From: Legionella parisiensis
Lineage (GTDB): Bacteria; Pseudomonadota; Gammaproteobacteria; Legionellales; Legionellaceae
Direction of reading: 5' to 3'
Assembly (NCBI RefSeq): GCF_001467945.1
Contig: NZ_LNYQ01000013.1
Span: 2,301,098 to 2,365,097, forward strand
Length of the DNA stretch: 64,000 bases
The notes under the pieces: model-generated
The model's input: the letters and a program-made list of their open reading frames with translations, nothing else
Database searches by the model: none
What the model was told of the DNA's origin: nothing
In this document: piece by piece, positions 1,763 to 47,422 of the stretch
Layout: every line of letters begins with the position of its first letter
Position numbering within the stretch: the stretch's first letter is position 1
Position numbers and translations under genes: made by a program

Positions 1763-4448
1763 TGGGTGCCTTCCTTAGTCGTTTCTGAGCTTCTATGATG
1801 AGCAAAGGCACCATGCCCAATAGAATCCAAACCAGGCATTGGGTGAATGAGACCGGTTGTATCCCAAATAATTCGCGCAATACCGGGATATGATGAATCA
1901 AGACCTGCAGGGAAAAACTGATGCTCACAATAAAAAAGAGTCTTAAATTGGAAAACAATCCTACTTGCCAAATGTTCTTCGTGTCGCTTCGCGCTCCAAA
2001 GGCCCATAAAAGCTCGGCGGTTACTAAAACAGAAAAGGCCGCATCTTGGGCTTGAATTAAATCCTTATCGATTAAATATTCATAAGCGAACACACTAAGG
2101 ATTACTAAAGCCTTTAAACAACCCACAAAGGTTACTCGTTTGAAAAACGCCATATCCATCATGGATTTTTGCGTGGCTCTGGGTGGACGATTCAAAATCC
2201 CTGGCTCTGACATATCGGTAGCTAAGCCAATGGCCGGCAAACCATCGGTTACTAAGTTAATCCATAATAATTGGATAGGAAGTAACGGCAGGGGCCAGCC
2301 GATTAAAAGTGCTACAAACACAACCAGTAACTCCCCACTATTGCCTGCTAATAAATAGGCAAGCGTTTTGGCAATGTTATCGTAAATCGTGCGACCTTCT
2401 TCAATACCTGCCACAATCGAGGTGAAGTTATTGTCCATGACAATGATGTCAGAGGCTTCTTTAGTGACAGCAGTCCCTGTTTTCCCCATGGCAATGCCCA
2501 CCGAAGCTTCTCTTAAAGCAGGCGCATCATTCACCCCATCACCTGTCATCGCCACCACCATTTGTTGTTTTTTCCAGGCCCGTACGATTTTTAATTTATG
2601 CTCCGCCGTCACACGAGCATAGACAGCAATGTCTTTGACGCAATGGTTAAATTCCTCCTCTGGCATATTTTCAAGTTCATTGCCAGTGAGTAATCGATCC
2701 CCTGCTTCCAAAATGCCAAGCTCTTTGGCAATGGCTCTTGCCGTGTCAGGATGGTCTCCTGTAATCATCACCGGTTTGATGCCGGCTTTTTTACAGCGAC
2801 TGATGGATTCCTTGCTACTTGCATGAGGTGGGTCCTGAAGACCAATAAGACCTAAAAACACCAGGTTATGTTCAATCTCGTCGTCTTCTTTTTCTAAAGC
2901 TGTAGGCTCTAATTGGCGCTTCGCAAAAGCTAGCAGTCGCAATGCTTCGCTGGCCATGAGTTCGCAGGATTGTTTCATGCGCGCTTTATCATTCGGTGTT
3001 AATTTTTTAATGCCTGTTTTGGTCAAAATATGGGTACAGCGCTCCAAAATGAGTTCGGGTGCCCCCTTCACAAAAGCGATGTGTTCATGGTCTTGTCGAC
3101 ACACAACTGTCATGCGTTTGCGTTCGGAACTAAAGGGTAACTCTTTGATGCGAGGATAAGAGGATCGCAGTTCCCCTCGCCAAATGCCTCCTTTGGCAGC
3201 AGCAACCAAAAGTGCCACTTCAGTTGGGTCTCCCACAGTAGCTACCTGTCCATCTTGGCTCTCAAAACTCGCGTTATTGCAAGCCACCATCGCTTGCAAA
3301 GTGGCTTGCAACAACTGGTCTTCTGGCACATTAATTTCTTGACCTTGAAGAGTAAACCCTCCCGAGATGTTATAGCCTTCTCCATGAATGCTATAAACAT
3401 CACTTGCCGTCACAAGCTGACGTGCAGTCATTTCACCTACGGTTAACGTTCCTGTTTTATCGGTGCAAATGACTTGTAAACAGCCGAGTGTTTCAACCGC
3501 CGATAATCGTCTTACCAGTACGGCACGCCGTACCATACGCTGCACACCAAGCGCTAAAGCCACCGTGACAACAGCAGGCAAGCCTTCAGGAATTGCAGCC
3601 ACTGCAAGACTGACTGAACTCATGAATAAGCTGAATAGAGAGATATTACGTAAAAGACCTAAGCCAAAAATGGCAATGATAATGAAAAAGCAAAGCCACA
3701 ATAGACGAGACCCCACTTGATTGAGTTTTTTCTGTAAAGGTGTTTCATCACGAGACGCCTCACCCAGCATTTTGGCAACATGGCCCATTTCCGTTTGCAT
3801 GCCGGTTGCCATAACAAGTGCTCTGCCTGTGCCATCGGCCACAGAGGTCCCCATAAACACCATGTTTTTACGGTCAGCTAGAGGCGTCTCGGCAGTGCAA
3901 ACATCCAGATTTTTAGCAACGGGTATCGACTCACCCGTGAGTGGCGCTTCATTGACCTTAAGCGCTGATAATTCAAAAAGACGAGCATCGGCAGCAATTA
4001 AATCGCCACTTTCAAAAAGAAGAATATCACCTGGTACGATATCAGAAGCGGCTATCACCTTCGCATGGCCATCGCGAAGCACTGTTGCTTTGGGAGCAGC
4101 CATTTGCTGAAGCGCAAGCATTGCCCTATCAGCGCGATATTCCAAAAAAAATCCGATGATGGCATTTAAAATGACAATGGCCAAAATGGCAATGGCGTCG
4201 GCTTTTTCATCTAATAAAAAAGAAACAAGGACAGCACCTAAAAGTACCCAGATGACCACACTCTCAAATTGCTGCAAAAAAATAATGAAGGGAGAGGTTC
4301 GCTTCTGTTTGCTGAGAAGGTTTGGCCCTACTTCCTTTAATCGCAGCTTGGCCTCTTTTTCAGATAACCCCAAAGAGAAATCGATGTTAAACCGTGAAGC
4401 AATCTCTACAGGTGATTTATCATGCCATTGCCCTTCCATAATAACCAT
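1749..4448 (-). CDS. P2-type (PacL/PMR1-like) cation-transporting ATPase
   Basis: This 899-residue P-type ATPase has an N-terminal cation-ATPase domain, the TGES dephosphorylation loop (about 171), the PEGLP membrane motif (about 287), the phosphorylation site DKTGT (330-334) and the GDGVNDAP hinge. The PEGLP motif, instead of CPC, places it with Ca2+/Mn2+-type P2 pumps and not with P1B heavy-metal pumps. It lacks a metal-binding N-terminal domain. ATG at 4448 is preceded by AGGA; Met4 (4439) is an alternative start. It is the first gene of a coupled unit with the CusC- and CusB-like genes, so metal stress is the likely context. The transported ion is uncertain. Confidence 0.9.
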   Translation of the reverse strand: MVIMEGQWHDKSPVEIASRFNIDFSLGLSEKEAKLRLKEVGPNLLSKQKRTSPFIIFLQQFESVVIWVLLGAVLVSFLLDEKADAIAILAIVILNAIIGFFLEYRADRAMLALQQMAAPKATVLRDGHAKVIAASDIVPGDILLFESGDLIAADARLFELSALKVNEAPLTGESIPVAKNLDVCTAETPLADRKNMVFMGTSVADGTGRALVMATGMQTEMGHVAKMLGEASRDETPLQKKLNQVGSRLLWLCFFIIIAIFGLGLLRNISLFSLFMSSVSLAVAAIPEGLPAVVTVALALGVQRMVRRAVLVRRLSAVETLGCLQVICTDKTGTLTVGEMTARQLVTASDVYSIHGEGYNISGGFTLQGQEINVPEDQLLQATLQAMVACNNASFESQDGQVATVGDPTEVALLVAAAKGGIWRGELRSSYPRIKELPFSSERKRMTVVCRQDHEHIAFVKGAPELILERCTHILTKTGIKKLTPNDKARMKQSCELMASEALRLLAFAKRQLEPTALEKEDDEIEHNLVFLGLIGLQDPPHASSKESISRCKKAGIKPVMITGDHPDTARAIAKELGILEAGDRLLTGNELENMPEEEFNHCVKDIAVYARVTAEHKLKIVRAWKKQQMVVAMTGDGVNDAPALREASVGIAMGKTGTAVTKEASDIIVMDNNFTSIVAGIEEGRTIYDNIAKTLAYLLAGNSGELLVVFVALLIGWPLPLLPIQLLWINLVTDGLPAIGLATDMSEPGILNRPPRATQKSMMDMAFFKRVTFVGCLKALVILSVFAYEYLIDKDLIQAQDAAFSVLVTAELLWAFGARSDTKNIWQVGLFSNLRLFFIVSISFSLQVLIHHIPVLRELFGIQPVSFTQCLVWILLGMVPLLIIEAQKRLRKAPNEAF

Positions 4449-4541
4449 CTAACCATCCTTTGCATTTGCATATCCATTAACCTGTTTTTACAGGTTTGAT
4501 TCTTTGAATATCCTCTAATCAATTGTATCAAAATGTAATAA

Positions 4542-4766
4542 TTTTATCACATTGGGGTATGGATTCATTTAACTGAAAATCAAATACATGAGCATACTCA
4601 TGAAGAAGAAACACATAGTCATAGCCATTATCATGACGAACATCATCAACATGAACATCTTTTCGATTGGGCTTGAAAAGAACCACATTCACACAGTCAT
4701 CATCACAATAAGCTCATTCATGCACATCCCCACTTTCCAGATATCCATCATCAACATAAGCATTAA
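4542..4766 (+). pseudogene. Relic of a histidine-rich metal-binding protein (in-frame stop)
   Basis: In one frame this stretch reads a strikingly His-rich sequence with HEH, HSHSH, HHQHEH, HSHSHHH and HHQHKH runs. It is interrupted by a single TGA at 4674-4676 directly after 'LFDWA' and continues in the same frame to TAA at 4764. No start codon is present: the frame opens after a stop at 4539. The composition is that of a metal-chelating tail on a transporter or metal-handling protein. I read it as a 5'-truncated gene with a nonsense mutation. A reading in another frame from 4588 lacks this pattern and is a shadow. Confidence 0.6.
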
Positions 4767-4785
4767 CCAGAGTATCCTCTTCAAA

Positions 4786-4959
4786 TTAATGAAGTTTAAA
4801 TGATACTCCGTGTAAAAAAATAGCAAGCATGATAAGAAAACTCACTAAGGAAAAAATAAAAGATAATTTTTGCTTATTTTTTTGAAAATAAATCATAAGA
4901 CTGAATAAAATAATGAGAAAAACAACAAACATGCCTAATACCCAAGCATTTATTATCAC
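4786..4959 (-). CDS. Small two-helix membrane protein (57 aa)
   Basis: This open frame begins with GTG at 4959, preceded by AGGA, and ends with TAA at 4786. It encodes 57 residues with two clear hydrophobic helices ('AWVLGMFVVFLIILFSLMIY' and 'SFIFSLVSFLIMLAIFLH') separated by a basic turn, QKNKQK. It lies 14 nt after the small lipoprotein gene on the same strand, so the two probably share a transcript. The positive-inside turn suggests both termini face the periplasm. I do not recognise a family. The position between two metal ATPase units suggests an envelope accessory role, which is inference. Confidence 0.6.
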   Translation of the reverse strand: MIINAWVLGMFVVFLIILFSLMIYFQKNKQKLSFIFSLVSFLIMLAIFLHGVSFKLH

Positions 4960-4973
4960 TTTTATTCCTAATT

Positions 4974-5147
4974 CTAGTCGTTATAATAATCATGCTCATG
5001 CTGAGCTTTGCCATCAGAACCCTTATCATGACCACTTTCAGAATGAGCTCCACCAGAAGCAGTTTGCATATGAGTGCATGAAATTAATCCAAACCCCGAA
5101 ATAAGAATACCTATCAGGAAGAACAGTTTAAATCTTGGCATAGTCAT
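4974..5147 (-). CDS. Small lipoprotein, His/Asp/Glu-rich
   Basis: The start at 5147 (MTMPRF) was chosen because GGAG lies 5 nt upstream. A longer frame from 5168 has no comparable site. The sequence has a basic n-region, a hydrophobic core and the lipobox LISC, so Cys about 24 would be lipidated. The roughly 33-residue mature part is rich in H, D, E, S and G ('SESGHDKGSDGK', 'EHDYYND'). It probably sits in the envelope and could bind metal loosely. It forms a pair with the small membrane protein that follows. No catalytic domain can be present at this size. Confidence 0.7.
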   Translation of the reverse strand: MTMPRFKLFFLIGILISGFGLISCTHMQTASGGAHSESGHDKGSDGKAQHEHDYYND

Positions 5148-5402
5148 TACATCTCCATATATAGACATAAAAAAACAAACTCACCCTACTACATTGAAAA
5201 ATAAGCTACCTTTTATACTAACATAATAAATACCCACTTTGATGAGTGGTGAAAATCAATTATTTTCCTTCATTAAAAACCCCAATAAACTTAAAACATT
5301 TTGTTTTGAAATGGATTTATGCTAAAGAGCCATCAAATACTAAAATTGACTCATTTCCATCCTGATTTTAATACCCAAAAAATGTTCTCGACTTACGTTA
5401 TT

Positions 5403-7559
5403 TTATTCATTACTTTCTGGAGACAAATACAACAATCGCAATCCATTAGCTACTACGATTAAACTCGCTCCCATATCTGCAAAAACCGCCATCCATAAAG
5501 TTGCATATCCTACAAGAGCTAAAATAAAGAAAATGCCTTTAATCGCAATAGATAAACTGATGTTTTGATAAAGAGTGCGTGCCGTCTTACGACTTAAATC
5601 AATATAAAAGGGAAGTCTTGCTAGATTATCATTCATGAGAGCAACGTCTGCTGTTTCTAAGGCGGTATCTGTTCCTTTCCCCATCGCAAAACTCACGGTA
5701 GCTTTTGCCAATGCAGGTGCATCATTAATTCCATCTCCTACCATACCAACACTATGATAGTGTTCTAAAAGACGATTAATCGCTTGCAGTTTTTCAGCAG
5801 GTAATATATTCGCATTTACTTCATCAATACCTACTTTTTTAGCAATAGCCTGAGCCGTTACCGCATTGTCTCCCGTTAACATCGCGGTTTTTATCCCCCG
5901 TTCATGTAGTTGTGCAATCGCCTGTTGGCTTGTAACACGTAAAGTATCAGCTACTGCAAAAATAGCCAAAACAGTCGTAGCATTACTTAATATTACGGTC
6001 GTTTTACCTTCTTCCTCCAAGCGCTTCAGCTCTTGTTCGACAAAATGATTGCATACCTGATTGTCTTCAGCTAACTGATGATTGCCTACAAAATAGAGTT
6101 CTTGACCCACTAATCCCTTTACTCCTCGTCCAGGAAGCGCTGAAAATTGCTCAATTTCAAGTAAAGCGTTTTGAGGTTGTTCCTGTTGCCAGTACTGTAC
6201 TAAGGCATTAGCGACTGGATGCTCTGAGTGACTATCAAGGCTTGCAGCTAACAATAACAAACTATCCTTAGTTCGATTTTCATCCCAAGCTATGAAGTCA
6301 GTTACAACTGGCTTTCCTTCCGTTAAAGTACCTGTCTTATCTAAAGCAATTAACCTCAGTCGATGACCAACCTCTAAGTAGCTTCCTCCTTTAATAAGAA
6401 GCCCTTGTTTTGCTGCCGCTGCAAGACCGCTTACAACAGTCACAGGTGTTGAAATCACTAAAGCGCAAGGGCAAGCAATAACTAATAAAGTCAGTGACTT
6501 ATAAAGAGAATCATAAAAAGGATAACCAAATGCTAAAGGTGGAATTAATGCAACAAAAAAAGCCATCAATACCATAATTGGAGTATAATATTTAGAAAAC
6601 TGATCAACAAATCGTTGTGTTGGAGCTCGATCCGCTTGCGCTTGCTCTATCGCTTTACCAATTTTAGCAAGCAATGTATCGCCTGACGCTTTACTGACCT
6701 GCACTTCAAACGCGCCGTGCTCATTTAATGTTCCTGCAAAAACCAAATCACCCACTTTTTTTGTTATTGGCATTGATTCACCAGTAATCGGCGCTTGATT
6801 GACCGTGCTCTGACCTGAAATAACCACGCCATCCAGGGGAATACGCTCTCCAGGTTTTACTCTAAAAATAGCACCAGGCACCACTTTTTCAATGGCCAAG
6901 GTTTGCCATTGACCATCGTCCTGTTTCACTGAAGCCACCTCAGGGGCAATTTGCATTAAGCTTCGAATCGCAAGACGTGCTTTATCTAAGGAGTAGCGCT
7001 CGATACGTTCGGCCAATGCAAATAAAACAGTCACCATTGCCGCTTCAGGCCACTCTCCAATAAGAACAGCCCCTGCTATCGCAATGAACATCAAGCTATT
7101 GATATTCATTGTTTTAGTCCCTAAGGCAAGCCACCCTTTTTTAAAGGTAGAAGGCCCACTAAGACCAATAGCCAACAAAGCTGGAAGAATAGTCCAAACG
7201 GATTGTTCTGTAGCTAAAAAATAAGCTGCCAGCTCAGAAAATAGGGCAAGAAAACCTGCTAGTCCAATAATTTTCCAGGAAAAATCCAAAGATAATTGTT
7301 TTCTTTGTGGTATAGGCAAAGTGCTTTCCAGAGTTCGAACATTCATTCCCAACGCCTCAATGCGTTTTTGCAATTCTTCACTTGAAGCCAACCGGTGATG
7401 AATGGTAACTTCTTCAGCAATAAAATTAAAATCCAACTGCTCCACTTCAGGAATATCCTGTAACTGCTTTCTGATTAGTTGCTCTTCCGCTGGACAATCA
7501 AGACCTGCAACAAAAAATTTGGTTTCATTTAAAGGTACTGTCATTTGGTTTTTCCGCAT
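5403..7559 (-). CDS. cadA: CadA/ZntA-type P1B ATPase (Zn/Cd/Pb export)
   Basis: This 718-residue P1B-type ATPase starts with a heavy-metal-associated domain whose metal loop is GLDCPAEE (about 19-26). It then has TGES (259), the membrane metal motif CPC (363-365), DKTGT (407-411), an HP motif ('SEHP', about 445) and GDGINDAP. CPC together with the C-x-x-E-E loop is typical of divalent Zn/Cd/Pb exporters in the inner membrane. Met6 (7544) has the better-spaced ribosome site and may be the true start. It lies 61 nt after helA on the same strand and may be its last operon member. Confidence 0.92.
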   Translation of the reverse strand: MRKNQMTVPLNETKFFVAGLDCPAEEQLIRKQLQDIPEVEQLDFNFIAEEVTIHHRLASSEELQKRIEALGMNVRTLESTLPIPQRKQLSLDFSWKIIGLAGFLALFSELAAYFLATEQSVWTILPALLAIGLSGPSTFKKGWLALGTKTMNINSLMFIAIAGAVLIGEWPEAAMVTVLFALAERIERYSLDKARLAIRSLMQIAPEVASVKQDDGQWQTLAIEKVVPGAIFRVKPGERIPLDGVVISGQSTVNQAPITGESMPITKKVGDLVFAGTLNEHGAFEVQVSKASGDTLLAKIGKAIEQAQADRAPTQRFVDQFSKYYTPIMVLMAFFVALIPPLAFGYPFYDSLYKSLTLLVIACPCALVISTPVTVVSGLAAAAKQGLLIKGGSYLEVGHRLRLIALDKTGTLTEGKPVVTDFIAWDENRTKDSLLLLAASLDSHSEHPVANALVQYWQQEQPQNALLEIEQFSALPGRGVKGLVGQELYFVGNHQLAEDNQVCNHFVEQELKRLEEEGKTTVILSNATTVLAIFAVADTLRVTSQQAIAQLHERGIKTAMLTGDNAVTAQAIAKKVGIDEVNANILPAEKLQAINRLLEHYHSVGMVGDGINDAPALAKATVSFAMGKGTDTALETADVALMNDNLARLPFYIDLSRKTARTLYQNISLSIAIKGIFFILALVGYATLWMAVFADMGASLIVVANGLRLLYLSPESNE

Positions 7560-15910: not shown

Positions 15911-16280
15911 CAAACGGGTAGATACTTTGTTCTTAAGATTTAATGCCATTTATGGTGCCTTATGGCTTTCTGCCTATAACAATGAAAAAGCCCTTGAAGC
16001 TGCCAAGCTGGAATGGTCTGACAGCATCAAAGAATTTGATAGCCAGGTCTTAACCTTTGCAGTGGAAAAAATCAAAAGAACGCAACAACGCCCTCCCGTT
16101 ATCCCTGTCTTTGTAGAACTTTGCATCAGCATTCAAAAAAGTATTAAGGCAAGAGAAGAATCTCTGCGGGCTAAACCCGAAAACTATAAAAGAACCGATC
16201 CACAAATCGTTAAATCCCACATCAAAGAGATGATGGAAAAGCTAACCAGTCCCTCAGTTAAGGAGAAAAAATCATGCTGA
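15762..16280 (+). CDS. lvrB: LvrB, ICE regulatory-block protein
   Basis: This 172-residue protein starts inside lvrA in another frame. ATG 15762 has a strong AGGAG at proper spacing, and the long overlap (149 nt) is supported by the conserved-looking second half. Residues 1-50 are low-complexity (Q, N, T, S). Residues 51-150 are helical ('VDTLFLRFNAIYGALWLSAY', 'ALEAAKLEW', 'RPPVIPVFVELC') and recall the P-like helicase-loading proteins of phages. The 3' end overlaps lvrC by 7 nt. A function with LvrA is inferred from this order; no enzymatic motif is visible. Confidence 0.8.
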   Translation: MQTLKQVIEKNQPQIFSLNPAKNPASASTLKTNPKQETTSSTSVQQETYDKRVDTLFLRFNAIYGALWLSAYNNEKALEAAKLEWSDSIKEFDSQVLTFAVEKIKRTQQRPPVIPVFVELCISIQKSIKAREESLRAKPENYKRTDPQIVKSHIKEMMEKLTSPSVKEKKSC

Positions 16281-16474
16281 TCCTAGACCGCAAAATTGGT
16301 GAAGAAATATTCATCAATAAAGGCAAAATCAAAATCACTGTTCTTTATGAAAAAAATGGCCTGATAGGAATTGGTGTCAGAGCACCCAGCGAAATCGATA
16401 TCGATCGCAAAGAAGTCTTTATCCGCAAATACATTCAAAAATTAGACCAAGAAAACAAGCCAAATCAAGAATAG
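16274..16474 (+). CDS. lvrC: LvrC/CsrT, CsrA-family RNA-binding regulator
   Basis: This 66-residue CsrA paralogue begins with the family opening 'MLILDRKIGEEIFI' and continues 'GIGVRAPSEIDIDRKEVF'. The RNA-contacting residues L4 and R6 and the later 'R(A/V)P' strand are kept. A strong AAGGAG lies upstream. ICE-borne CsrA paralogues of this kind (csrT) sit upstream of conjugation genes and are thought to act on ICE or host mRNAs. The gene is only 8 nt from the first T4SS gene, so it should be co-transcribed with it. Confidence 0.93.
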   Translation: MLILDRKIGEEIFINKGKIKITVLYEKNGLIGIGVRAPSEIDIDRKEVFIRKYIQKLDQENKPNQE

Positions 16475-39466: not shown

Positions 39467-39480
39467 CAATCTTGGTAATT

Positions 39481-39622
39481 CTGCGTCACTGCAAATTTCC
39501 CAGCAGTGACGCAGAAAAATCACCTTGATTTTACCACGTAAAATCAACACATTTCAGCATTTTGTCCTATCCCGCCAATCGGGATTGGACAAAATTATTT
39601 CCAAAATCCCTTGCGAAGCAAG
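39481..39622. other. Dense hairpin cluster (terminator / possible oriT or ssDNA promoter)
   Basis: Four inverted repeats follow one another. CTGCGTCACTGC and GCAGTGACGCAG (39481-39514) form a perfect 12-bp stem with a 10-nt loop. TTGATTTTAC-CAC-GTAAAATCAA (39525-39547) is a 10-bp stem with a 3-nt loop. ATTTTGTCC/GGACAAAAT (39559-39595) encloses an inner CCCG/CGGG stem. CTTGC-GAA-GCAAG is at 39610-39622. The first may end transcription of the gene before it. Such clusters are also typical of conjugation origins and single-strand promoters. The cluster ends 25 nt before a hammerhead ribozyme. Confidence 0.6.
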
Positions 39623-39646
39623 CACCGCTTTGCTAATTTGGAATCA

Positions 39647-39702
39647 AGCATGACTGATGAGCTGGTGAAAAACCGGCGAAACGTCAATCGACGTCTTATG
39701 CT
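39647..39702 (+). ncRNA. Type I hammerhead ribozyme, copy 1
   Basis: All core parts of a hammerhead are present. The 5' strand of stem I is AGCATGA (39647-39653), then CTGATGA (39654-39660). Stem II is GCTGGT/ACCGGC closed by GAAAA. GAAA follows (39678-39681), then stem III CGTC/GACG with loop AATC. The cleavage triplet GUC ends at 39695, and the 3' strand of stem I is TTATGCT (39696-39702). Stem I is the open stem, so this is type I. Self-cleavage would fall after C39695. It lies about 350 nt upstream of the integrase pair, on the same strand. Confidence 0.88.
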
Positions 39703-39704
39703 AA

Positions 39705-39748
39705 GCCACTTCATTCCCTAACTTTGTGGCTGGACGTTCAGTCGGGAA
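39705..39748 (+). ncRNA. H-type pseudoknot after hammerhead 1
   Basis: GCCAC (39705-39709) pairs with GTGGC (39726-39730). TTCCC in the loop (39714-39718) pairs with GGGAA downstream (39744-39748), which gives an H-type pseudoknot. The same design follows hammerhead 2 with a compensatory change in the first stem (GCCAT/ATGGC). A hairpin AACTCC-CTCG-GGAGTT lies further on at 39782-39797. The element begins 3 nt after the ribozyme, so the two probably act as one RNA module. Confidence 0.65.
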
Positions 39749-40048
39749 AAACATCTAGGAATCTCTGTCATCCGACAGGGCAACTCCCTCGGGAGTTTAA
39801 GTCAATTTATTTCAATTTGACCATGGACTTGTATGACAAGAGCCATTGTCTTGTCGTTTTTATTAATCATCAAAACAAGGAGGAAATACACACCCAAAAA
39901 CTGTTGTAAATCGGCGAGATCGTTTGCCTTATAACGATTGATTTGCCCCCTACTTCGAGCTTTATGGCTTTGGCCAGGTTTCATCTTTGAGTGAGCCGCT
40001 CGTTCAACACTAAACCAAAGACAGGGCAAATAAATTTTATCGGATGGG
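39749..40048 (+). other. Leader of the integrase operon, no clear gene
   Basis: Apart from the hairpin at 39782-39797, this 300-nt stretch holds an isolated AAGGAGG near 39880 without a following ATG, and A/T-rich DNA. Long frames on both strands cross it, but they lack ribosome sites and overlap the structured RNA. I see no supported gene. It is best read as a long 5' leader of the integrase genes. Confidence 0.45.
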
Positions 40049-40858
40049 ATGATGAGAAAATACAGCTTAAGACAAACTGCCAATCAATATTTAAAGCTCG
40101 GCAATCAAGGCAGCTACAAAATCAAAAAACAACGAGCATACGTTATTCGTAAAATGATTGATGATTTCTATACCATTGGAGATGTGCCATCTTCGTGGAA
40201 AAATATTCAATCAAATCATATTCATCAACTGGTAGCACATTGGAAAAAGAGTAAACTACGTTCCAGCACGATTATGAATCATATGACTATCGTCCGACAT
40301 TACCTGCTCAGCATAGACTGCCCTATCCCCGATATAGACAATAAATCGCTGCAACTTAGCAAAACAAGCAAGAAACGCAAAAGAAAACTCAAAATCCAGC
40401 ATAACCATTGGCAATCATGGGATAATTCAATCCCCCGCCTTATTATGGCATTACAAACTGAATTTGGGCTTACCTTTCAAGAAGCCATTTATATAAAACC
40501 TGAAATTAACATCCAAACAGACAGCATCTGGATAACCAGAAACATCGCGTTTAATTCCTTGGATAGAACAATTCCTATCAGATTTGAAATGCAAAAATCC
40601 ATCCTGGATGAAATCAAAAAGCTGACTGACGGTAAATCCATTGCTGAGTTTAACGATTATGACGACACCAAAATTGCCTGGCGAAAGGTTTTAAAAAAAC
40701 ATGCCTTACCAATTAATAAAGCATACCGCTATCTCTATGCAAAACAGATGGCTCTGTATCTTTTACCACTATTGGGGAAATACGAAGCCTATTGGGTTAT
40801 TCGCAGCGAAATGGGCATCAAATCCCGTGATTCTTTATGGAGGTATCTCAATGAGTAA
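40049..40858 (+). CDS. Degenerate tyrosine-recombinase paralogue (integrase partner)
   Basis: This 269-residue protein is clearly a paralogue of the following integrase. The N-terminal 'HIHQLVAHWKK...STIMNHM' matches 'HIHILVEHWKT...ATIKNYM'. However, the catalytic Arg in 'FGLRREES' is replaced ('FGLTFQEA', Thr142). The HxxRH box reads 'KAYRYLY', and the LGHSR box reads 'MGIKSRDS'. A C-terminal Tyr266 remains. It should be unable to cut DNA and may be a structural or targeting subunit. The stop overlaps the next start by 8 nt, which suggests the two subunits are made together. Confidence 0.7.
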   Translation: MMRKYSLRQTANQYLKLGNQGSYKIKKQRAYVIRKMIDDFYTIGDVPSSWKNIQSNHIHQLVAHWKKSKLRSSTIMNHMTIVRHYLLSIDCPIPDIDNKSLQLSKTSKKRKRKLKIQHNHWQSWDNSIPRLIMALQTEFGLTFQEAIYIKPEINIQTDSIWITRNIAFNSLDRTIPIRFEMQKSILDEIKKLTDGKSIAEFNDYDDTKIAWRKVLKKHALPINKAYRYLYAKQMALYLLPLLGKYEAYWVIRSEMGIKSRDSLWRYLNE

Positions 40859-41750
40859 GTCCAAACTTAAAAATGCGCAGTATTCCATCAATGAATGTAT
40901 TAAGAAAATCCAAAACTACTCCCACGCCAGCAGAGCGGATATGAAACACATGCTGAATCGCTGCGTCAAAGATTTGCACGCGCTAGGCTATATGGTCACA
41001 CACATCAAAGGATTAAAACCAAAGCACATACACATCCTGGTTGAACACTGGAAAACCCAGAATAAAAATCCTGCAACAATAAAAAATTACATGGCTAAAC
41101 TGCGAAAAGTAGCCTCGGTGCTAAACAAGCCAGAACTGGTTAAGCAAGGCAACGACAGCTATCAAATCAATAAACGTAATTATGCTCCTCAATACAATAA
41201 AGCAATCAACAATGTCGATTTTTCTAAATGCTCAGACCCAATGATCCGTTTATCCCTGGAAGCCCAATTCCTTTTTGGTCTTCGCCGTGAAGAATCTATG
41301 AAGATTGTACTTAGTGATGCCTGGCAAGGAAATAAATTGGTTATAAAGCCTAGCTGGACAAAAGGTGGCATCGGTCGTGATATTAGACTCACGAATGAGC
41401 AACAACGACAATGGCTACTCAATGCGATAAAGCAAGTTCCTGCTGGACAATCTCTCATTCCTAAAGAAAAGACCTATAAAAATCATCTTGCTCAGTATCA
41501 TGAAGTGATAGAAAAAATGGGCTTAAGCAAATGCCATGGCCTTCGCCATGCTTATGCTCAGCGAAGATATCATGAAATTACAAAATCCTATGACAAAACT
41601 GGCAATGGACTTATATGCCCAATTCAAGGAGGCAGAGTATACAACGAACTGAATCCTCTTGAAAAATATTGGGATAGAACCGCAAGGGAAATTATTAGCC
41701 AGTCGCTTGGGCATTCGAGATTGAGTATTACAAAGATCTACTTAGGCTGA
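40851..41750 (+). CDS. int: Tyrosine recombinase (phage-integrase type), ICE integrase
   Basis: This 299-residue integrase has an N-terminal SAM-like domain (Phage_integr_N type) and a catalytic domain of the Integrase_1 type. Catalytic residues are Arg145 in 'FGLRREE', Lys171 in 'WTKGGIG', His229 and Arg232 in 'CHGLRHAYAQ', His288 in 'LGHSR' and Tyr297 in 'KIYLG' at the extreme C-terminus. ATG 40851 has GGAGG upstream; longer frames lack a site. It is expected to insert the element at the tRNA-Thr gene 5.6 kb away. It ends 9 nt into a convergent GNAT gene. Confidence 0.9.
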   Translation: MSKSKLKNAQYSINECIKKIQNYSHASRADMKHMLNRCVKDLHALGYMVTHIKGLKPKHIHILVEHWKTQNKNPATIKNYMAKLRKVASVLNKPELVKQGNDSYQINKRNYAPQYNKAINNVDFSKCSDPMIRLSLEAQFLFGLRREESMKIVLSDAWQGNKLVIKPSWTKGGIGRDIRLTNEQQRQWLLNAIKQVPAGQSLIPKEKTYKNHLAQYHEVIEKMGLSKCHGLRHAYAQRRYHEITKSYDKTGNGLICPIQGGRVYNELNPLEKYWDRTAREIISQSLGHSRLSITKIYLG

Positions 41751-42278
41751 CAATCTTTGTATTTTTAAATCTTCAATACACAATTTCATTTTATAATGTG
41801 GTACTGGGTGCCATGGAGCTATAAATTCCCCAATGATTTCAAAACCAGCTTTTTTATAAACATGAACCGCACGCTCATTAGAGATTTCAGGATCAATAAG
41901 CACGATTTTAGCATCAGAAAATTGCCTTAAGATAAATTCATGTATCATCTGTACTGATAATCCCTTCCCAATATAATCCAACCTGCAAATGAATAAATCC
42001 AGCGTAACTGCACTATCAGGATATTCTTCTGATTTCTCTATTTCAGAAGTAATCAAGTAAGCGAAGGGGATTTCATTATCATAGGCTATCCAATGAGTAG
42101 CCCATGGTTCCCCATCGTTTAAAAATTCATGAAGGTCTTTTATTGTATTACTTAAACCATCACCATGAAGCCATTCATTAATATGTGGCTGATGAATCCA
42201 CCCCAAAACAAGTGCATGTTGCGCATTCATTGGTTTGAAACAAAAACGAACCTCATTTGTGGAGACTTTAATCATCAA
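41742..42278 (-). CDS. GNAT acetyltransferase, AAC(6')-like
   Basis: This 178-residue protein resembles the Acetyltransf_8/AAC(6')-I group. It has 'LVLGWIHQPHINEWLHGD' at the start, 'LFICRLDYIGKGLSVQMIHE' as the acetyl-CoA loop, and 'DPEISNERAVHVYKKAGF' near the end. This layout is shared by aminoglycoside 6'-N-acetyltransferases and siderophore-type GNATs. The drug role is inferred. The gene is convergent with the integrase (9-nt overlap) and lies between the two hammerheads on the opposite strand, so it is probably a later insertion into the region. Confidence 0.75.
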   Translation of the reverse strand: MMIKVSTNEVRFCFKPMNAQHALVLGWIHQPHINEWLHGDGLSNTIKDLHEFLNDGEPWATHWIAYDNEIPFAYLITSEIEKSEEYPDSAVTLDLFICRLDYIGKGLSVQMIHEFILRQFSDAKIVLIDPEISNERAVHVYKKAGFEIIGEFIAPWHPVPHYKMKLCIEDLKIQRLSA

Positions 42279-42424
42279 ATAACACTCAAAAAAACTAGGA
42301 CCTTATCTTTGAATTCTACCATTTATCAGAAAGCGGTCTATTAATAAATTTTCAATTAAGTTCATTTACTATCACTTGAAAAAAGCGCTTGATTTCCAAT
42401 ACAAGCTTGATAATCTGAAAGCAA
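42279..42424. other. Divergent gap between the GNAT gene and hammerhead 2
   Basis: This gap should hold the promoter of the minus-strand GNAT gene and the promoter for the plus-strand leader that carries hammerhead 2. The DNA is A/T-rich, with AAAAGCGCTT near 42391 as a small palindrome. No coding frame is supported. Confidence 0.4.
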
Positions 42425-42472
42425 CACAACTGATGAGTCAGCGCAAATCTGACGAAACCACTAGGTCTTGTG
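42425..42472 (+). ncRNA. Type I hammerhead ribozyme, copy 2
   Basis: Stem I 5' strand CACAA (42425-42429) is followed by CTGATGA (42430-42436). Stem II is GTCAG/CTGAC with loop CGCAAAT. GAAA follows (42454-42457), then a short stem III CC/GG with loop ACTA. GUC gives cleavage after C42467, and TTGTG (42468-42472) is the 3' strand of stem I. Every conserved core base matches, while the stems differ in sequence from copy 1. This argues for selection on structure. Stem III has only two pairs plus the A-U core pair. It lies about 215 nt before the start of the gene at 42687. Confidence 0.85.
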
Positions 42473-42475
42473 ATA

Positions 42476-42520
42476 TGCCATCTTGTTCCCTAATTCCATG
42501 GCAAAGCGTTTAGCAGGGAA
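42476..42520 (+). ncRNA. H-type pseudoknot after hammerhead 2
   Basis: TGCCAT (42476-42481) pairs with ATGGCA (42498-42503), and TTCCC in the loop (42486-42490) pairs with GGGAA (42516-42520). Compared with the copy at 39705, the first stem has a C-G pair replaced by U-A, a compensatory change. Short flanking words are also shared (CATC then AGGA about 5-8 nt after the second stem). The order hammerhead, pseudoknot, leader is the same in both copies. Confidence 0.65.
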
Positions 42521-42686
42521 ACCCATCAGGAGTTGTCTTTACGGCTTTACGCCCGAGGAGTGCTTCAAGCACATCATCATTAATAACCAGGTAAATCAAC
42601 CGATGTTTCGGTGATCTTTTTGCATAACCCAATTGGGATTCATAGTCCCTTTGGGGCTAATCCTCCCTACCCCTAAGGAGCATACC

Positions 42687-42881
42687 ATGCAACAGCAGGA
42701 ACCAGCGCAACTTGAAATTGAACATTTGCTGTTTGAACTGAATTGTTGTGTGAATGATTTAAGTCGTCATCGACTGCAAATTAATCCCTATGACATTCAA
42801 CAGGCAGAGTTAAGTTTGCACAAACTGGAATCTTTGATTTCCTTTGTCAAACAGTTCGATACTCAACGAATTGCTTGTTAA
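42687..42881 (+). CDS. Small helical protein (64 aa) upstream of ssb
   Basis: The start at 42687 was chosen for its strong AAGGAG; an in-frame start at 42633 has none. The 64 residues are helical and charged, with 'LEIEHLLFELNCCVNDLSRH' and 'IQQAELSLHKLESLISFVKQ'. It could be a small DNA-entry protein like those in plasmid leading regions. It is the first gene behind the hammerhead 2 leader and precedes ssb by 100 nt. The family is unknown. Confidence 0.65.
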   Translation: MQQQEPAQLEIEHLLFELNCCVNDLSRHRLQINPYDIQQAELSLHKLESLISFVKQFDTQRIAC

Positions 42882-42900
42882 TTGAAACAAATTAAGTCTT

Positions 42901-42948
42901 ATCCGCATAACAGAAAACCACCTGCCTATGCGGATGTTTTTCTGTTAT
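42901..42948 (+). promoter_or_regulatory. Two interleaved hairpins ahead of ssb
   Basis: ATCCGCATA (42901-42909) pairs with TATGCGGAT (42927-42935). ATAACAGAAAA (42907-42917) pairs with TTTTCTGTTAT (42938-42948). The arms are interleaved and share three bases. They can therefore form a pseudoknot or switch between two exclusive hairpins. The second hairpin ends about 34 nt before the ssb start. It could attenuate ssb expression or act as a promoter on single-stranded DNA. Confidence 0.5.
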
Positions 42949-42981
42949 ACCGCTCAGATTTAACAATAACAGGAGAATACA

Positions 42982-43404
42982 ATGACTGCATCTTTAAACC
43001 GAGTTCAATTAATTGGCAATCTTGGTGCTGATCCCAAAATCGTCACTGGAAAAGATGGACAATCTTTTGTCACAGCTACTTTGGCTACCAATGAATCATT
43101 CAAACAGAATGATGAATGGCAGACCAGAGTGGAATGGCATCAGCTGGTACTATTTGGAAAGCTAACCAAAGTCGCTGAGTATTTAAAGAAAGGTTCACAT
43201 GTATACCTAGAAGGTAAACTGCGTTCTAATCAATGGACAGACAACGAAGGCAAAGCACGTCAAGCCTTAAGCATTATTGTCAACCATATTCAGCTACTCA
43301 GCTCACCCAAATCAGCTGATGAATCTAGCAACAAAACCGCAGAACAGCACATGGCGCAAATGCGTGAAATGTTGCAACCGGATTCAGAAGAAATTCCGTT
43401 TTAA
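42982..43404 (+). CDS. ssb: Single-stranded DNA-binding protein
   Basis: This 140-residue SSB has the OB-fold start 'LNRVQLIGNLGADPKIVTGK' and 'VEWHQLVLFGKLTKVAEYLK', then 'GSHVYLEGKLRSNQW'. The C-terminal tip is 'DSEEIPF', matching the acidic tip that binds partner proteins. It is shorter than chromosomal SSB. Together with ardA it makes up a typical ICE/plasmid entry module that coats and protects incoming DNA. ACAGGAGAA lies at good spacing. Confidence 0.94.
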   Translation: MTASLNRVQLIGNLGADPKIVTGKDGQSFVTATLATNESFKQNDEWQTRVEWHQLVLFGKLTKVAEYLKKGSHVYLEGKLRSNQWTDNEGKARQALSIIVNHIQLLSSPKSADESSNKTAEQHMAQMREMLQPDSEEIPF

Positions 43405-43415
43405 TCATACCCTAC

Positions 43416-43435
43416 CACGGGAGCAAGCTCCCGTG
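43416..43435. terminator. Hairpin between ssb and ardA
   Basis: CACGGGAGC (43416-43424) and GCTCCCGTG (43427-43435) form a nearly perfect 9-bp stem with a 2-nt AA loop; the innermost pairs probably open to give a 4-nt loop. No long T run follows, so full termination is unlikely. It may stabilise ssb mRNA or lower ardA expression. Confidence 0.5.
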
Positions 43436-43469
43436 TGGGATTGCTCCCTTAATACAAGGAGATAATCCC

Positions 43470-43976
43470 ATGGACACCCCTTCAATCTACGTCGCGTGTT
43501 TAGCCTCATACAACAATGCCATTCTGCATGGTGTTTGGATAGATGCCACACAAAGCGAAGATGACATTATGGAAGAAATCTGGGAAATGCTGGATAACAG
43601 CCCTGAACCCAATGCTGAAGAATACGCCATACATGATTATGAAGGATTCGGCAGCATCAAAATCCATGAGTATGAGTCAATAAGTAATATTGTGGAGTAT
43701 GCTTCATTTATTCAAGAACACGGAGAGCTAGGCTTAGCCCTTCTCTGCGATTATTTGGTAGATGATGCACAAACCATGCTGGAGGATCATTACCAAGGTT
43801 GTTATGATTCAGAGGTTGATTTTTCCAGGCAGTTATTTGATGACTGTTATGCCCATCAAATGCCGGATAATTTGATCTGCTATTTTGATTTTGAAGCTTT
43901 TGCTCGGGATCTTTTTATTAGTGATTATTGTTCGGTAGAGTTTGGTGGACAGACATATATTTTTGCGAACTTTTAA
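43470..43976 (+). CDS. ardA: ArdA antirestriction protein
   Basis: This 168-residue, very acidic DNA mimic opens with 'PSIYVACLASYNNAILHGVW'. 'YAIHDYEGFGSIKIHEYESI' follows and the end is 'FEAFARDLFISDYCSVEFGG', all classic for ArdA. It blocks type I restriction enzymes by imitating bent DNA, which protects the incoming ICE. An AAGGAG site is present. A rho-independent terminator follows directly, closing the entry operon. Confidence 0.94.
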   Translation: MDTPSIYVACLASYNNAILHGVWIDATQSEDDIMEEIWEMLDNSPEPNAEEYAIHDYEGFGSIKIHEYESISNIVEYASFIQEHGELGLALLCDYLVDDAQTMLEDHYQGCYDSEVDFSRQLFDDCYAHQMPDNLICYFDFEAFARDLFISDYCSVEFGGQTYIFANF

Positions 43977-47349: not shown

Positions 47350-47422
47350 TGCCGCTGAGAGGAGTCGAACCTCCGACCTCTTGATTACGAATCAACTGCT
47401 CTACCGACTGAGCTACAGCGGC
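47350..47422 (-). tRNA. tRNA-Thr (anticodon CGU)
   Basis: The minus strand folds into a full cloverleaf. Acceptor arms are GCCGCTG and CAGCGGC with discriminator A, the D-arm is GCTC/GAGC, and the anticodon loop is TTCGTAA (anticodon CGT). The T-arm is GGAGG-TTCGACT-CCTCT. CCA is not encoded. The 27-43 pair is a mismatch, as in the Escherichia coli thrW tRNA. Its 3' end faces the ICE, the usual position of an attachment site. Confidence 0.95.

What the first reader, a model, noticed from the sequence alone, without database searches (positions are those of the whole stretch)
39647..42472. Two type I hammerhead ribozymes in one ICE, 2.77 kb apart and in the same orientation
Both 39647-39702 and 42425-42472 contain every core base of a hammerhead (CTGATGA, GAAA, GUC) with three paired stems. 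The stem sequences differ between the copies, which points to selection on structure. One is in the leader of the integrase pair, the other in the leader of the small-ORF/ssb/ardA operon. Cleavage would fall after 39695 and 42467. If one transcript spans both, self-cleavage frees a defined RNA of about 2.77 kb with ends suited to ligation, as in retrozyme-like elements. Otherwise each copy trims an operon leader. A hammerhead pair tied to ICE integration and entry genes is not something I know to be described.
Basis: partly seen in the sequence, partly recalled or inferred. Interest (0 to 1): 0.95.

Follow-up and report, generated by a model that had tools for sequence, protein, structure and literature searches.

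The report
Self-cutting RNA leaders in Legionella ICEs
Two genuine-looking self-cutting RNAs sit at the predicted start of the messages for the integration genes and for the DNA-entry protection genes of a mobile DNA element, each joined to a conserved RNA knot, so they probably trim and protect those messages rather than release a circular RNA.

Summary
39647-39702 and 42425-42472 have the form of type I hammerheads: in 63 related leaders 12 core bases are invariant (six of them selected for) while N7 varies, and the stems covary. Rfam's hammerhead models miss both at gathering score.

The hammerheads do not stand alone. Each is the 5' part of a composite leader: a predicted promoter whose -10 ends 13-14 nt before the catalytic core, the ribozyme, then an H-type pseudoknot starting 8 nt after the cleavage site. 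The pseudoknot's 3' half is the start of Rfam RAGATH-32. The leader precedes the tandem integrase pair (class A) and the small-ORF/ssb/ardA operon (class B). A model of it hits 85 of 143 genomes of the order. Four genomes of other families also match; three of these leaders precede an Int1 homologue, an SSB and an ArdA.

The retrozyme reading is not supported here: a gene on the opposite strand lies between the sites, spacing varies between elements, and the excised RNA's stem I strands pair by only 2 bp.

Partly known: Perreault 2011 reported Legionella hammerheads before ardA and bacterial hammerheads near integrases. Cleavage itself is untested.

The parts
39611..39639 (+). Predicted sigma-70 type promoter of class A leader: TTGCGA (39611-39616), 17-nt spacer, TAATTT (39634-39639); predicted start about 39646
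   Evidence: Aligned in the upstream regions of related sites. Ties for the best score in the 100 nt upstream. Not matched by the stricter consensus scan.
39647..39702 (+). Hammerhead A, type I; cleavage predicted between 39695 and 39696
39704..39748 (+). H-type pseudoknot A: 39704-39709 with 39726-39731 (PK1), 39714-39718 with 39744-39748 (PK2)
   Evidence: PK1 98.4% paired with double changes in 3 of 6 pairs; PK2 93% paired, mostly invariant; top-scoring pseudoknot in an unbiased search
39726..39804 (+). Rfam RAGATH-32 (RF02922), 97.8 bits; its start is the 3' half of the pseudoknot
39833..39857 (+). Terminator-like hairpin followed by a T run, between the pseudoknot and the integrase genes
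   Evidence: terminator-like hairpins in 48 of 68 class A leaders, 7.2 expected from Markov shuffles
39937..40031 (+). Rfam RAGATH-13 (RF02688), 107.3 bits
40049..40858 (+). Int1 of the tandem integrase pair (PF12834)
40851..41750 (+). Int2 of the tandem integrase pair (PF12834 and PF12835)
42389..42416 (+). Predicted promoter of class B leader: TTGATT (42389-42394), 16-nt spacer, TAATCT (42411-42416); predicted start about 42423
   Evidence: Sequence and class B rows of the upstream alignment (the window's own B site was merged there with the identical leader of L108). By score it is fourth in the 100 nt upstream: 6.9 against 7.6, 7.1 and 7.0. Not matched by the stricter scan.
42425..42472 (+). 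Hammerhead B, type I; cleavage predicted between 42467 and 42468
42476..42520 (+). H-type pseudoknot B: 42476-42481 with 42498-42503, 42486-42490 with 42516-42520
   Evidence: weak RAGATH-32 match 42498-42538, 18.8 bits
42687..42881 (+). 64-aa small ORF, first gene of the class B operon
   Evidence: no Pfam or NCBIfam match
42982..43404 (+). SSB (PF00436)
43470..43976 (+). ArdA antirestriction protein (PF07275)

Best explanation
Each site is the start of one composite leader RNA: promoter, type I hammerhead at the extreme 5' end of the transcript, then an H-type pseudoknot. As RNA polymerase leaves the promoter the hammerhead folds and cuts. This removes about the first 50 nt with its triphosphate and leaves a messenger with a 5' hydroxyl, whose first 50 or so bases hold the pseudoknot. 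Such an end cannot be primed for RNase E by RppH and is structurally shielded, so the integrase and the ssb/ardA messengers would be long-lived or released from 5'-end control at the moment the element enters or re-integrates. The pseudoknot probably also serves the ribozyme, taking the place of the usual loop I/loop II contact: loop II is mostly GNRA-like and would point at PK1. Shown by comparison: hammerhead and PK1 structure, their fixed spacing, and the gene association in several families. Predicted: promoter position. Inferred: cleavage, the 5'-OH messenger, stabilisation, loop II docking.
For: Hammerhead core and stems under selection. Of 102 distinct pseudoknot-motif sites, 94 have an intact hammerhead by the scanner, its core 64-72 nt upstream in the 71 places where the distance was measured, overlapping loci included. 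PK1 covaries: AGCCAC/GUGGCU, UGCCAU/AUGGCA, CACCAU/AUGGUG. In three genomes of other families with different pseudoknot letters the best pseudoknot has the same order and nearly the same offsets: L182 11/23/35/54, L185 10/19/30/52, L189 10/21/34/54, against 8/18/30/48 in window site A; these leaders precede an Int1 homologue (26% identity, E 1e-18), an SSB and an ArdA. The best promoter in the 100 nt upstream has its -10 ending 12-16 nt before CTGANGA in 54 of 108 sites and in all 5 outsiders; mean score there 7.27 against 5.52 (sd 0.92) at random places. Of 102 sites, 60 precede Int1/Int2 and 33 small ORF/SSB/ArdA. Loop II holds a GNRA by a loose test in 95 of 103. In Perreault 2011, 14 of 18 tested hammerheads conforming to the consensus cleaved in vitro.
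Against: No cleavage, no 5' end and no transcript was measured. PK2 is mostly invariant, so covariation says little for it inside Legionellaceae. In the other 54 of 108 sites a higher- or equal-scoring promoter-like place lies elsewhere in the 100 nt; in the window the predicted promoter ties for first at A and is fourth at B, and the stricter scan lists neither. Site B does not fold to the hammerhead as its MFE. A few copies have lost pairing or the core: L061 has a broken core and also lacks the 5' strand of PK1; L132 has a 2-nt stem III loop. One outsider hit, L183, has no such pseudoknot (94 of 100 shuffles do as well); for the other three, 5 to 22 of 100 shuffles reach the score alone. 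Messenger stabilisation by a 5'-OH is argued from RNase E/RppH biochemistry (recalled), not shown.
Confidence: 0.57

Rival explanations
1. The composite leader is a regulated switch: the pseudoknot and the hairpins after it bind a regulator, perhaps the element's own CsrA paralogue (CsrT/LvrC type, 16274-16474), and decide between termination or blocked translation and expression. The hammerhead sets the 5' boundary or is itself gated.
For: Terminator-like hairpins after the pseudoknot in 48 of 68 class A leaders against 7.2 expected, at 39833-39857 in the window. A GGA 2-22 nt after the motif in 64 of 68 class A and 22 of 34 class B leaders, shuffled means 6.6 and 4.4, at offset 9-14 in 63 of the 68. 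CsrA paralogue in the ICE, PF02599 51.4 bits. The two classes share the leader but not the promoter sequence. PMC7366521 (passages) reports the suggestion by Abbott 2015 that CsrT regulates ICE activity.
Against: GGA and hairpin counts come from related sequences and are not independent. The stricter CsrA-type AnGGA (motif recalled) is there in only 20 of 68 and 9 of 34, though above shuffled means of 1.6 and 1.3. Terminator-like hairpins in class B only 9 of 33 against 3.6 expected. No binding data.
Confidence: 0.25
2. Retrozyme-like or operon-splitting use: one long transcript spans both sites, is cut twice, and a defined 2.77-kb RNA is released and possibly circularised.
For: Same strand, 2,772 bases apart. 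A-then-B order on one strand in 20 of 21 rows of adjacent sites; one row, L145, is B then A (rows include duplicate loci). In 8 of the 20 rows B's 5' strand pairs with A's 3' strand by 5 bp, as many as B's own stem I. RtcB present in the genome. Multi-hammerhead arrangements flanking genes are described in Perreault 2011.
Against: Promoters predicted directly before each site (with the limits). Opposite-strand GNAT gene in between. Spacing 2,183-6,384 in the 20 A-then-B rows. Cross-pairing 2 bp in the window and at most 2 bp in the other 11 A-then-B rows. Perreault 2011 could not detect spliced or circular products from their clusters.
Confidence: 0.08
3. Conserved DNA features (promoter and operator, or a single-stranded entry promoter) explain the conservation, and the hammerheads are inert leftovers.
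For: Conserved promoter region; operator-like inverted repeat upstream of class A; ssb and ardA are typical leading-region genes (recalled).
Against: Compensatory changes in all three hammerhead stems and PK1. GAAA and cleavage site invariant 63 of 63 with N7 free. The pseudoknot keeps its topology with different letters in three genomes of other families.
Confidence: 0.07

Closest known systems
Bacterial type I hammerhead ribozymes near integrase and ardA genes (Perreault et al. 2011, PMC3088659; section 6 and the first part of section 11 read, other passages seen)
   Same: Core, type I topology, bacterial mobile-element setting, proximity to integrase and ardA, including ardA directly downstream of a hammerhead in three Legionella strains; several ribozymes in one element
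   Different: What I read describes no pseudoknot downstream of the ribozyme (theirs joins stems I and II), no promoter placement, no integrase-leader copy in Legionella and no link to RAGATH-32. Their supplementary alignments were not seen
RAGATH-32 RNA (Rfam RF02922, Cis-reg)
   Same: 39726-39804 scores 97.8 bits against a cut-off of 41.8
   Different: The Rfam consensus shows the first part as unpaired and starts inside the pseudoknot; the 5' half of the knot and the hammerhead lie upstream of the model. Class B reaches only 18.8 bits
RAGATH-13 RNA (Rfam RF02688, typed as ribozyme in Rfam)
   Same: 39937-40031 scores 107.3 bits; an 'ACACTAAAC' marker of it follows 59 of 60 class A leaders
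   Different: Separate RNA further downstream; marker absent from class B (0 of 33)
Retrozymes and other hammerhead-bounded circular RNAs (recalled)
   Same: Two hammerheads in the same orientation
   Different: Stem I strands not interchangeable here, promoter predicted at each site, protein-coding genes on both strands in between
Hammerhead upstream of the helicase in haloviruses HF1/HF2 (described in PMC3088659, section 11 part 1)
   Same: Hammerhead near the start of an early-gene messenger; its mapped 5' end lies within three nucleotides of the cleavage site
   Different: Variant core, archaeal virus, no pseudoknot leader mentioned in the passage

Membership tests
Type I hammerhead ribozyme | Core C3 U4 G5 A6 N7 G8 A9 / G12 A13 A14 A15 / U16 H17 (as listed in a passage of PMC3088659) | tested here: met
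   All 63 aligned leaders; CTGANGA was a selection criterion, GAAA and UC were not. Sites without CTGANGA (such as L061, L107) were left out of A1
Type I hammerhead ribozyme | Three stems around the core, open at stem I | tested here: met
   Helices 1-3 paired in 89.1, 97.4 and 94.1% of cells, double changes in all three
Type I hammerhead ribozyme | Peripheral contact between stem I and stem II | tested here: inconclusive
   GNRA-like loop II in 95 of 103 (loose test) and PK1 next to stem I, but docking is inferred
Type I hammerhead ribozyme | Self-cleavage after H17 | not testable with these tools
   No experiment or RNA-seq available
Type I hammerhead ribozyme | Rfam gathering score of a hammerhead model | tested here: not met
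   None in the window; among 11 further loci scanned to E 0.1 the best is HH9 34.7 bits against a cut-off of 52. This concerns the models' reach, not the core features
RAGATH-32 | Rfam gathering score 41.8 bits, class A | tested here: met
   97.8 bits
RAGATH-32 | Rfam gathering score 41.8 bits, class B | tested here: not met
   18.8 bits at 42498-42538
Retrozyme-like circular RNA element | Two interchangeable hammerheads bounding the excised RNA (definition recalled) | tested here: not met
   Cross-pairing of stem I 2 bp in the window; 5 bp in 8 of 20 A-then-B rows elsewhere
Retrozyme-like circular RNA element | Circular junction in RNA | not testable with these tools
   No reads available
Legionella GI-T4SS ICE (LGI) | GI-T4SS genes, CsrA-like regulator upstream, tandem integrase pair downstream (as described in passages of PMC3864950) | tested here: met
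   TIGR03744 and TIGR03755, TraD-like domains, PF02599, Int pair. Element ends not found

The most novel reading that the evidence does not exclude
A two-part RNA device, hammerhead plus pseudoknot acting as one integrated ribozyme-switch, is the shared 5' control of the establishment genes of ICEs: it couples site-specific integration (int pair) to protection of incoming DNA (ssb, ardA), possibly gated by the element's own CsrA paralogue, and it has spread with or been kept by these gene classes across several gammaproteobacterial families.
Probability: 0.22. Interest if true: 0.85.

Novelty: new variant of a known kind. Interest (0 to 1): 0.62.

Why it matters
The role of bacterial hammerheads was called unclear when they were found (Perreault 2011). 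Here their position is unusually informative: at the predicted first base of the message, next to a covarying pseudoknot, mostly on two operons of one kind of element, in 85 of 143 genomes of the order searched. That turns a vague question into a direct one about 5' ends and messenger lifetime. It also suggests that Rfam RAGATH-32 is the 3' part of a larger RNA, so its model begins in the middle of a pseudoknot.

Tried and rejected
Retrozyme reading: tested by cross-pairing of stem I strands, predicted promoters and gene direction; not favoured, kept at low probability because RtcB is present and 8 of 20 A-then-B rows could cross-pair by 5 bp.

Bare core pattern as evidence: rejected, 2 found against 1.28 expected. 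In the whole genome a looser pattern gives 22 matches, overlapping ones included, against 6 for the reversed control.

ICE ends: the tRNA-Thr gene at 47350 has no second copy of its 3' 25 bases in the genome at up to 2 mismatches, so no end was fixed. A palindrome at 39559-39595 was considered as an att or operator site; it occurs once in the genome by exact pattern and was left open.

CsrA-site idea: GGA is well placed but the stricter AnGGA is in a minority; kept only within a rival.

Terminators: a first scan without a control gave 38 of 71 class A and 6 of 30 class B with looser class labels; the controlled scan supports class A mainly.

Search outside Legionellaceae: 4 genomes of other families among 369 of the class sample; 1 of 398 in the phylum sample, the window's own genome; no viral contig for the pseudoknot pattern.
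Full report
What is there. The window lies in a Legionella-like genome (G000; all three plasmid records with similar DNA are Legionella). The element looks like a GI-T4SS ICE of the LGI kind: TIGR03744 and TIGR03755 transfer genes, TraD-like coupling-protein domains, a CsrA paralogue at 16274-16474 (PF02599), a tandem integrase pair at 40049-41750 and a small-ORF/ssb/ardA operon at 42687-43976. PMC3864950 (passages only) describes such a layout: a CsrA-domain gene in the regulatory module, and a tandem integrase pair 1-17 kb downstream of 13 of 14 clusters, with deletion of one of them raising the episomal form in strain Corby.

The two hammerheads. Rfam misses them at gathering score, and folding alone supports only A. 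The case rests on comparison. RAGATH-32 (RF02922), which Rfam finds directly downstream of A, was searched in 140 related genomes; 35 had it at E 0.001. My scanner found a type I hammerhead upstream of nearly all the sites fetched (74 rows, overlapping loci counted more than once). With named contigs added (66 stretches, all titled Legionella or Legionellaceae except two of one 'Proteobacteria bacterium' MAG) there are 102 distinct sites with the pseudoknot 3' motif; 94 have an intact hammerhead by the scanner. Of the eight others, L028, L034, L057, L058 and L128 look complete but for a mispair in stem I or II, L132 has a very short stem III loop, L061 has a broken core, and L107 is a hybrid described under Noticed in passing. 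Window site B is counted there through L108, whose leader is identical.

Statistical test. Alignment A1 holds 63 leaders: of 103 sites with a CTGANGA 40-100 nt before the motif (keyed slightly differently from the 102), near-identical ones and those too close to a contig end were left out, and window site B was added. Sites without the core, such as L061 and L107, were thereby dropped before the count. Pairing is 94.2% of cells; 200 double-change cells against 57 shuffled and 9 to 19 in slid controls; pairs with any double change 16 against 12.1, reached by 10 of 500 shuffles. GAAA and the UC cleavage site, not used for selection, are 63 of 63, while N7 varies. The shuffles do not keep relatedness; the slid controls do.

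Eight nucleotides after the cleavage site begins an H-type pseudoknot: in A 39704-39709 with 39726-39731 and 39714-39718 with 39744-39748; in B 42476-42481 with 42498-42503 and 42486-42490 with 42516-42520. PK1 covaries strongly: the outermost pair is AU 37, CG 11, UA 10, GU 1, 4 unpaired, and the innermost CG 36, UA 22, UG 4, 1 unpaired. PK2 is nearly invariant within Legionellaceae. The 5' strand of PK1 was not part of any selection pattern; that of PK2 was part of the pattern. Outside the family, three hits have different letters but the same topology and close offsets. Each alone is reached by 5 to 22 of 100 shuffles; their agreement in geometry is the argument. A fourth locus, L183, has no such knot, and L184 is cut off by the contig end. 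Rfam RAGATH-32 starts at 39726, at the 3' strand of PK1, and shows this part as unpaired.

Promoter placement. Upstream of the ribozymes a -35/-10 pair is visible in the alignments of both classes, with different sequences. In a simple scan the best promoter in the 100 nt upstream has its -10 ending 12-16 nt before the core in 54 of 108 sites and in 5 of 5 outsiders; the mean local score is 7.27 against 5.52 (sd 0.92) at random places, where 5.5% reach the local median. In the window itself the evidence is weaker: at A the place ties for first, at B it is fourth (6.9 against 7.6, 7.1 and 7.0), and the stricter consensus scan lists neither. If right, transcription starts at about the first base of stem I, so the ribozyme is the first thing made.

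Which genes. Of 102 sites, 60 precede Int1/Int2, 33 precede small ORF, SSB or ArdA, and 9 were not assigned, some because the contig stretch ends. The RAGATH-13 marker follows 59 of 60 class A and 0 of 33 class B leaders. Outsiders: L182 precedes an Int1 homologue (no Pfam match), L185 an SSB, L189 an ArdA. So the leader is tied to establishment genes, not to one operon.

Spread. A model built from A1 hits 85 of 143 genomes of the order (every listed hit is in the window's own family), 7 of 369 of the class sample, 4 of them outside the family. A second model, with outsiders included, hits 2 of 3 and 1 of 10 in the orders of two outsiders, the hits being the outsiders already known, and 1 of 398 of the phylum sample, the window's own genome. 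The searches over more than 40 genomes use stricter filters that lose weak matches. The own genome holds five copies.

How it probably works. Co-transcriptional cleavage would remove the triphosphate-bearing first 50 nt and leave a 5'-OH message with a pseudoknot near its end. From recalled knowledge of RppH and RNase E this should protect it. The alternative in which the leader is a switch has some support: terminator-like hairpins in 48 of 68 class A leaders against 7.2 expected, and GGA motifs at a fixed place, in an element that carries its own CsrA paralogue. Both readings can hold at once.

What is known. Perreault 2011 (PMC3088659; section 6 and the first of two parts of section 11 read; passages) already gives bacterial hammerheads near integrases, clusters around ardA, and ardA directly downstream of a hammerhead in three Legionella strains; they could not detect circular or spliced products; 14 of 18 consensus hammerheads that they tested were active. 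PMC10085705 (passages) recalls that bacterial hammerheads are enriched near specific genes. PMC5413113 and PMC7366521 (passages) mention CsrT; PMC8191799 (passages) deals with RAGATH-18 in what I saw. Literature searches listed no paper whose title or shown abstract describes a hammerhead-pseudoknot leader or a hammerhead in the Legionella integrase leader. The two papers that I recall as the source of RAGATH, and the one on CsrT, are not held, and supplements were not seen, so prior mention there cannot be excluded.

Verdict. Real, structured and partly known; the composite leader and its placement are the new part.

Noticed in passing
window 39559-39595: Inverted repeat (16-nt arms, 94% complementary, 5-nt loop) just upstream of promoter A; once in the genome by exact pattern. 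Possible operator or recombination site.
   Followed up: partly
window 39479-39516: 14-nt perfect inverted repeat with 10-nt loop after the gene upstream of leader A, perhaps its terminator.
   Followed up: no
L107 around 3273 (-): Hybrid leader: class A hammerhead and half of its pseudoknot run straight into the class B tail, as if the DNA between an A and a B leader had been lost by recombination, or a MAG assembly error.
   Followed up: no
window 16274-16474: CsrA paralogue (PF02599, 51.4 bits; below the NCBIfam equivalog cut-off) just before the transfer genes, of the LvrC/CsrT kind described for Legionella ICEs.
   Followed up: partly
G000:C13:2223750, C13:1067676, C12:373265: Three further copies of the composite leader in the same genome; the C12 copy has no RAGATH-32 hit but keeps the hammerhead, the pseudoknot motif and the RAGATH-13 marker.
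   Followed up: partly
window 42687-42881: Conserved 64-aa ORF heading the ssb/ardA operon, found in 30 of 33 class B loci and without any Pfam or NCBIfam match.
   Followed up: no
window 47350-47422: tRNA-Thr gene beyond the operon; its 3' 25 bases have no second copy in the genome, so it gave no att repeat.
   Followed up: partly
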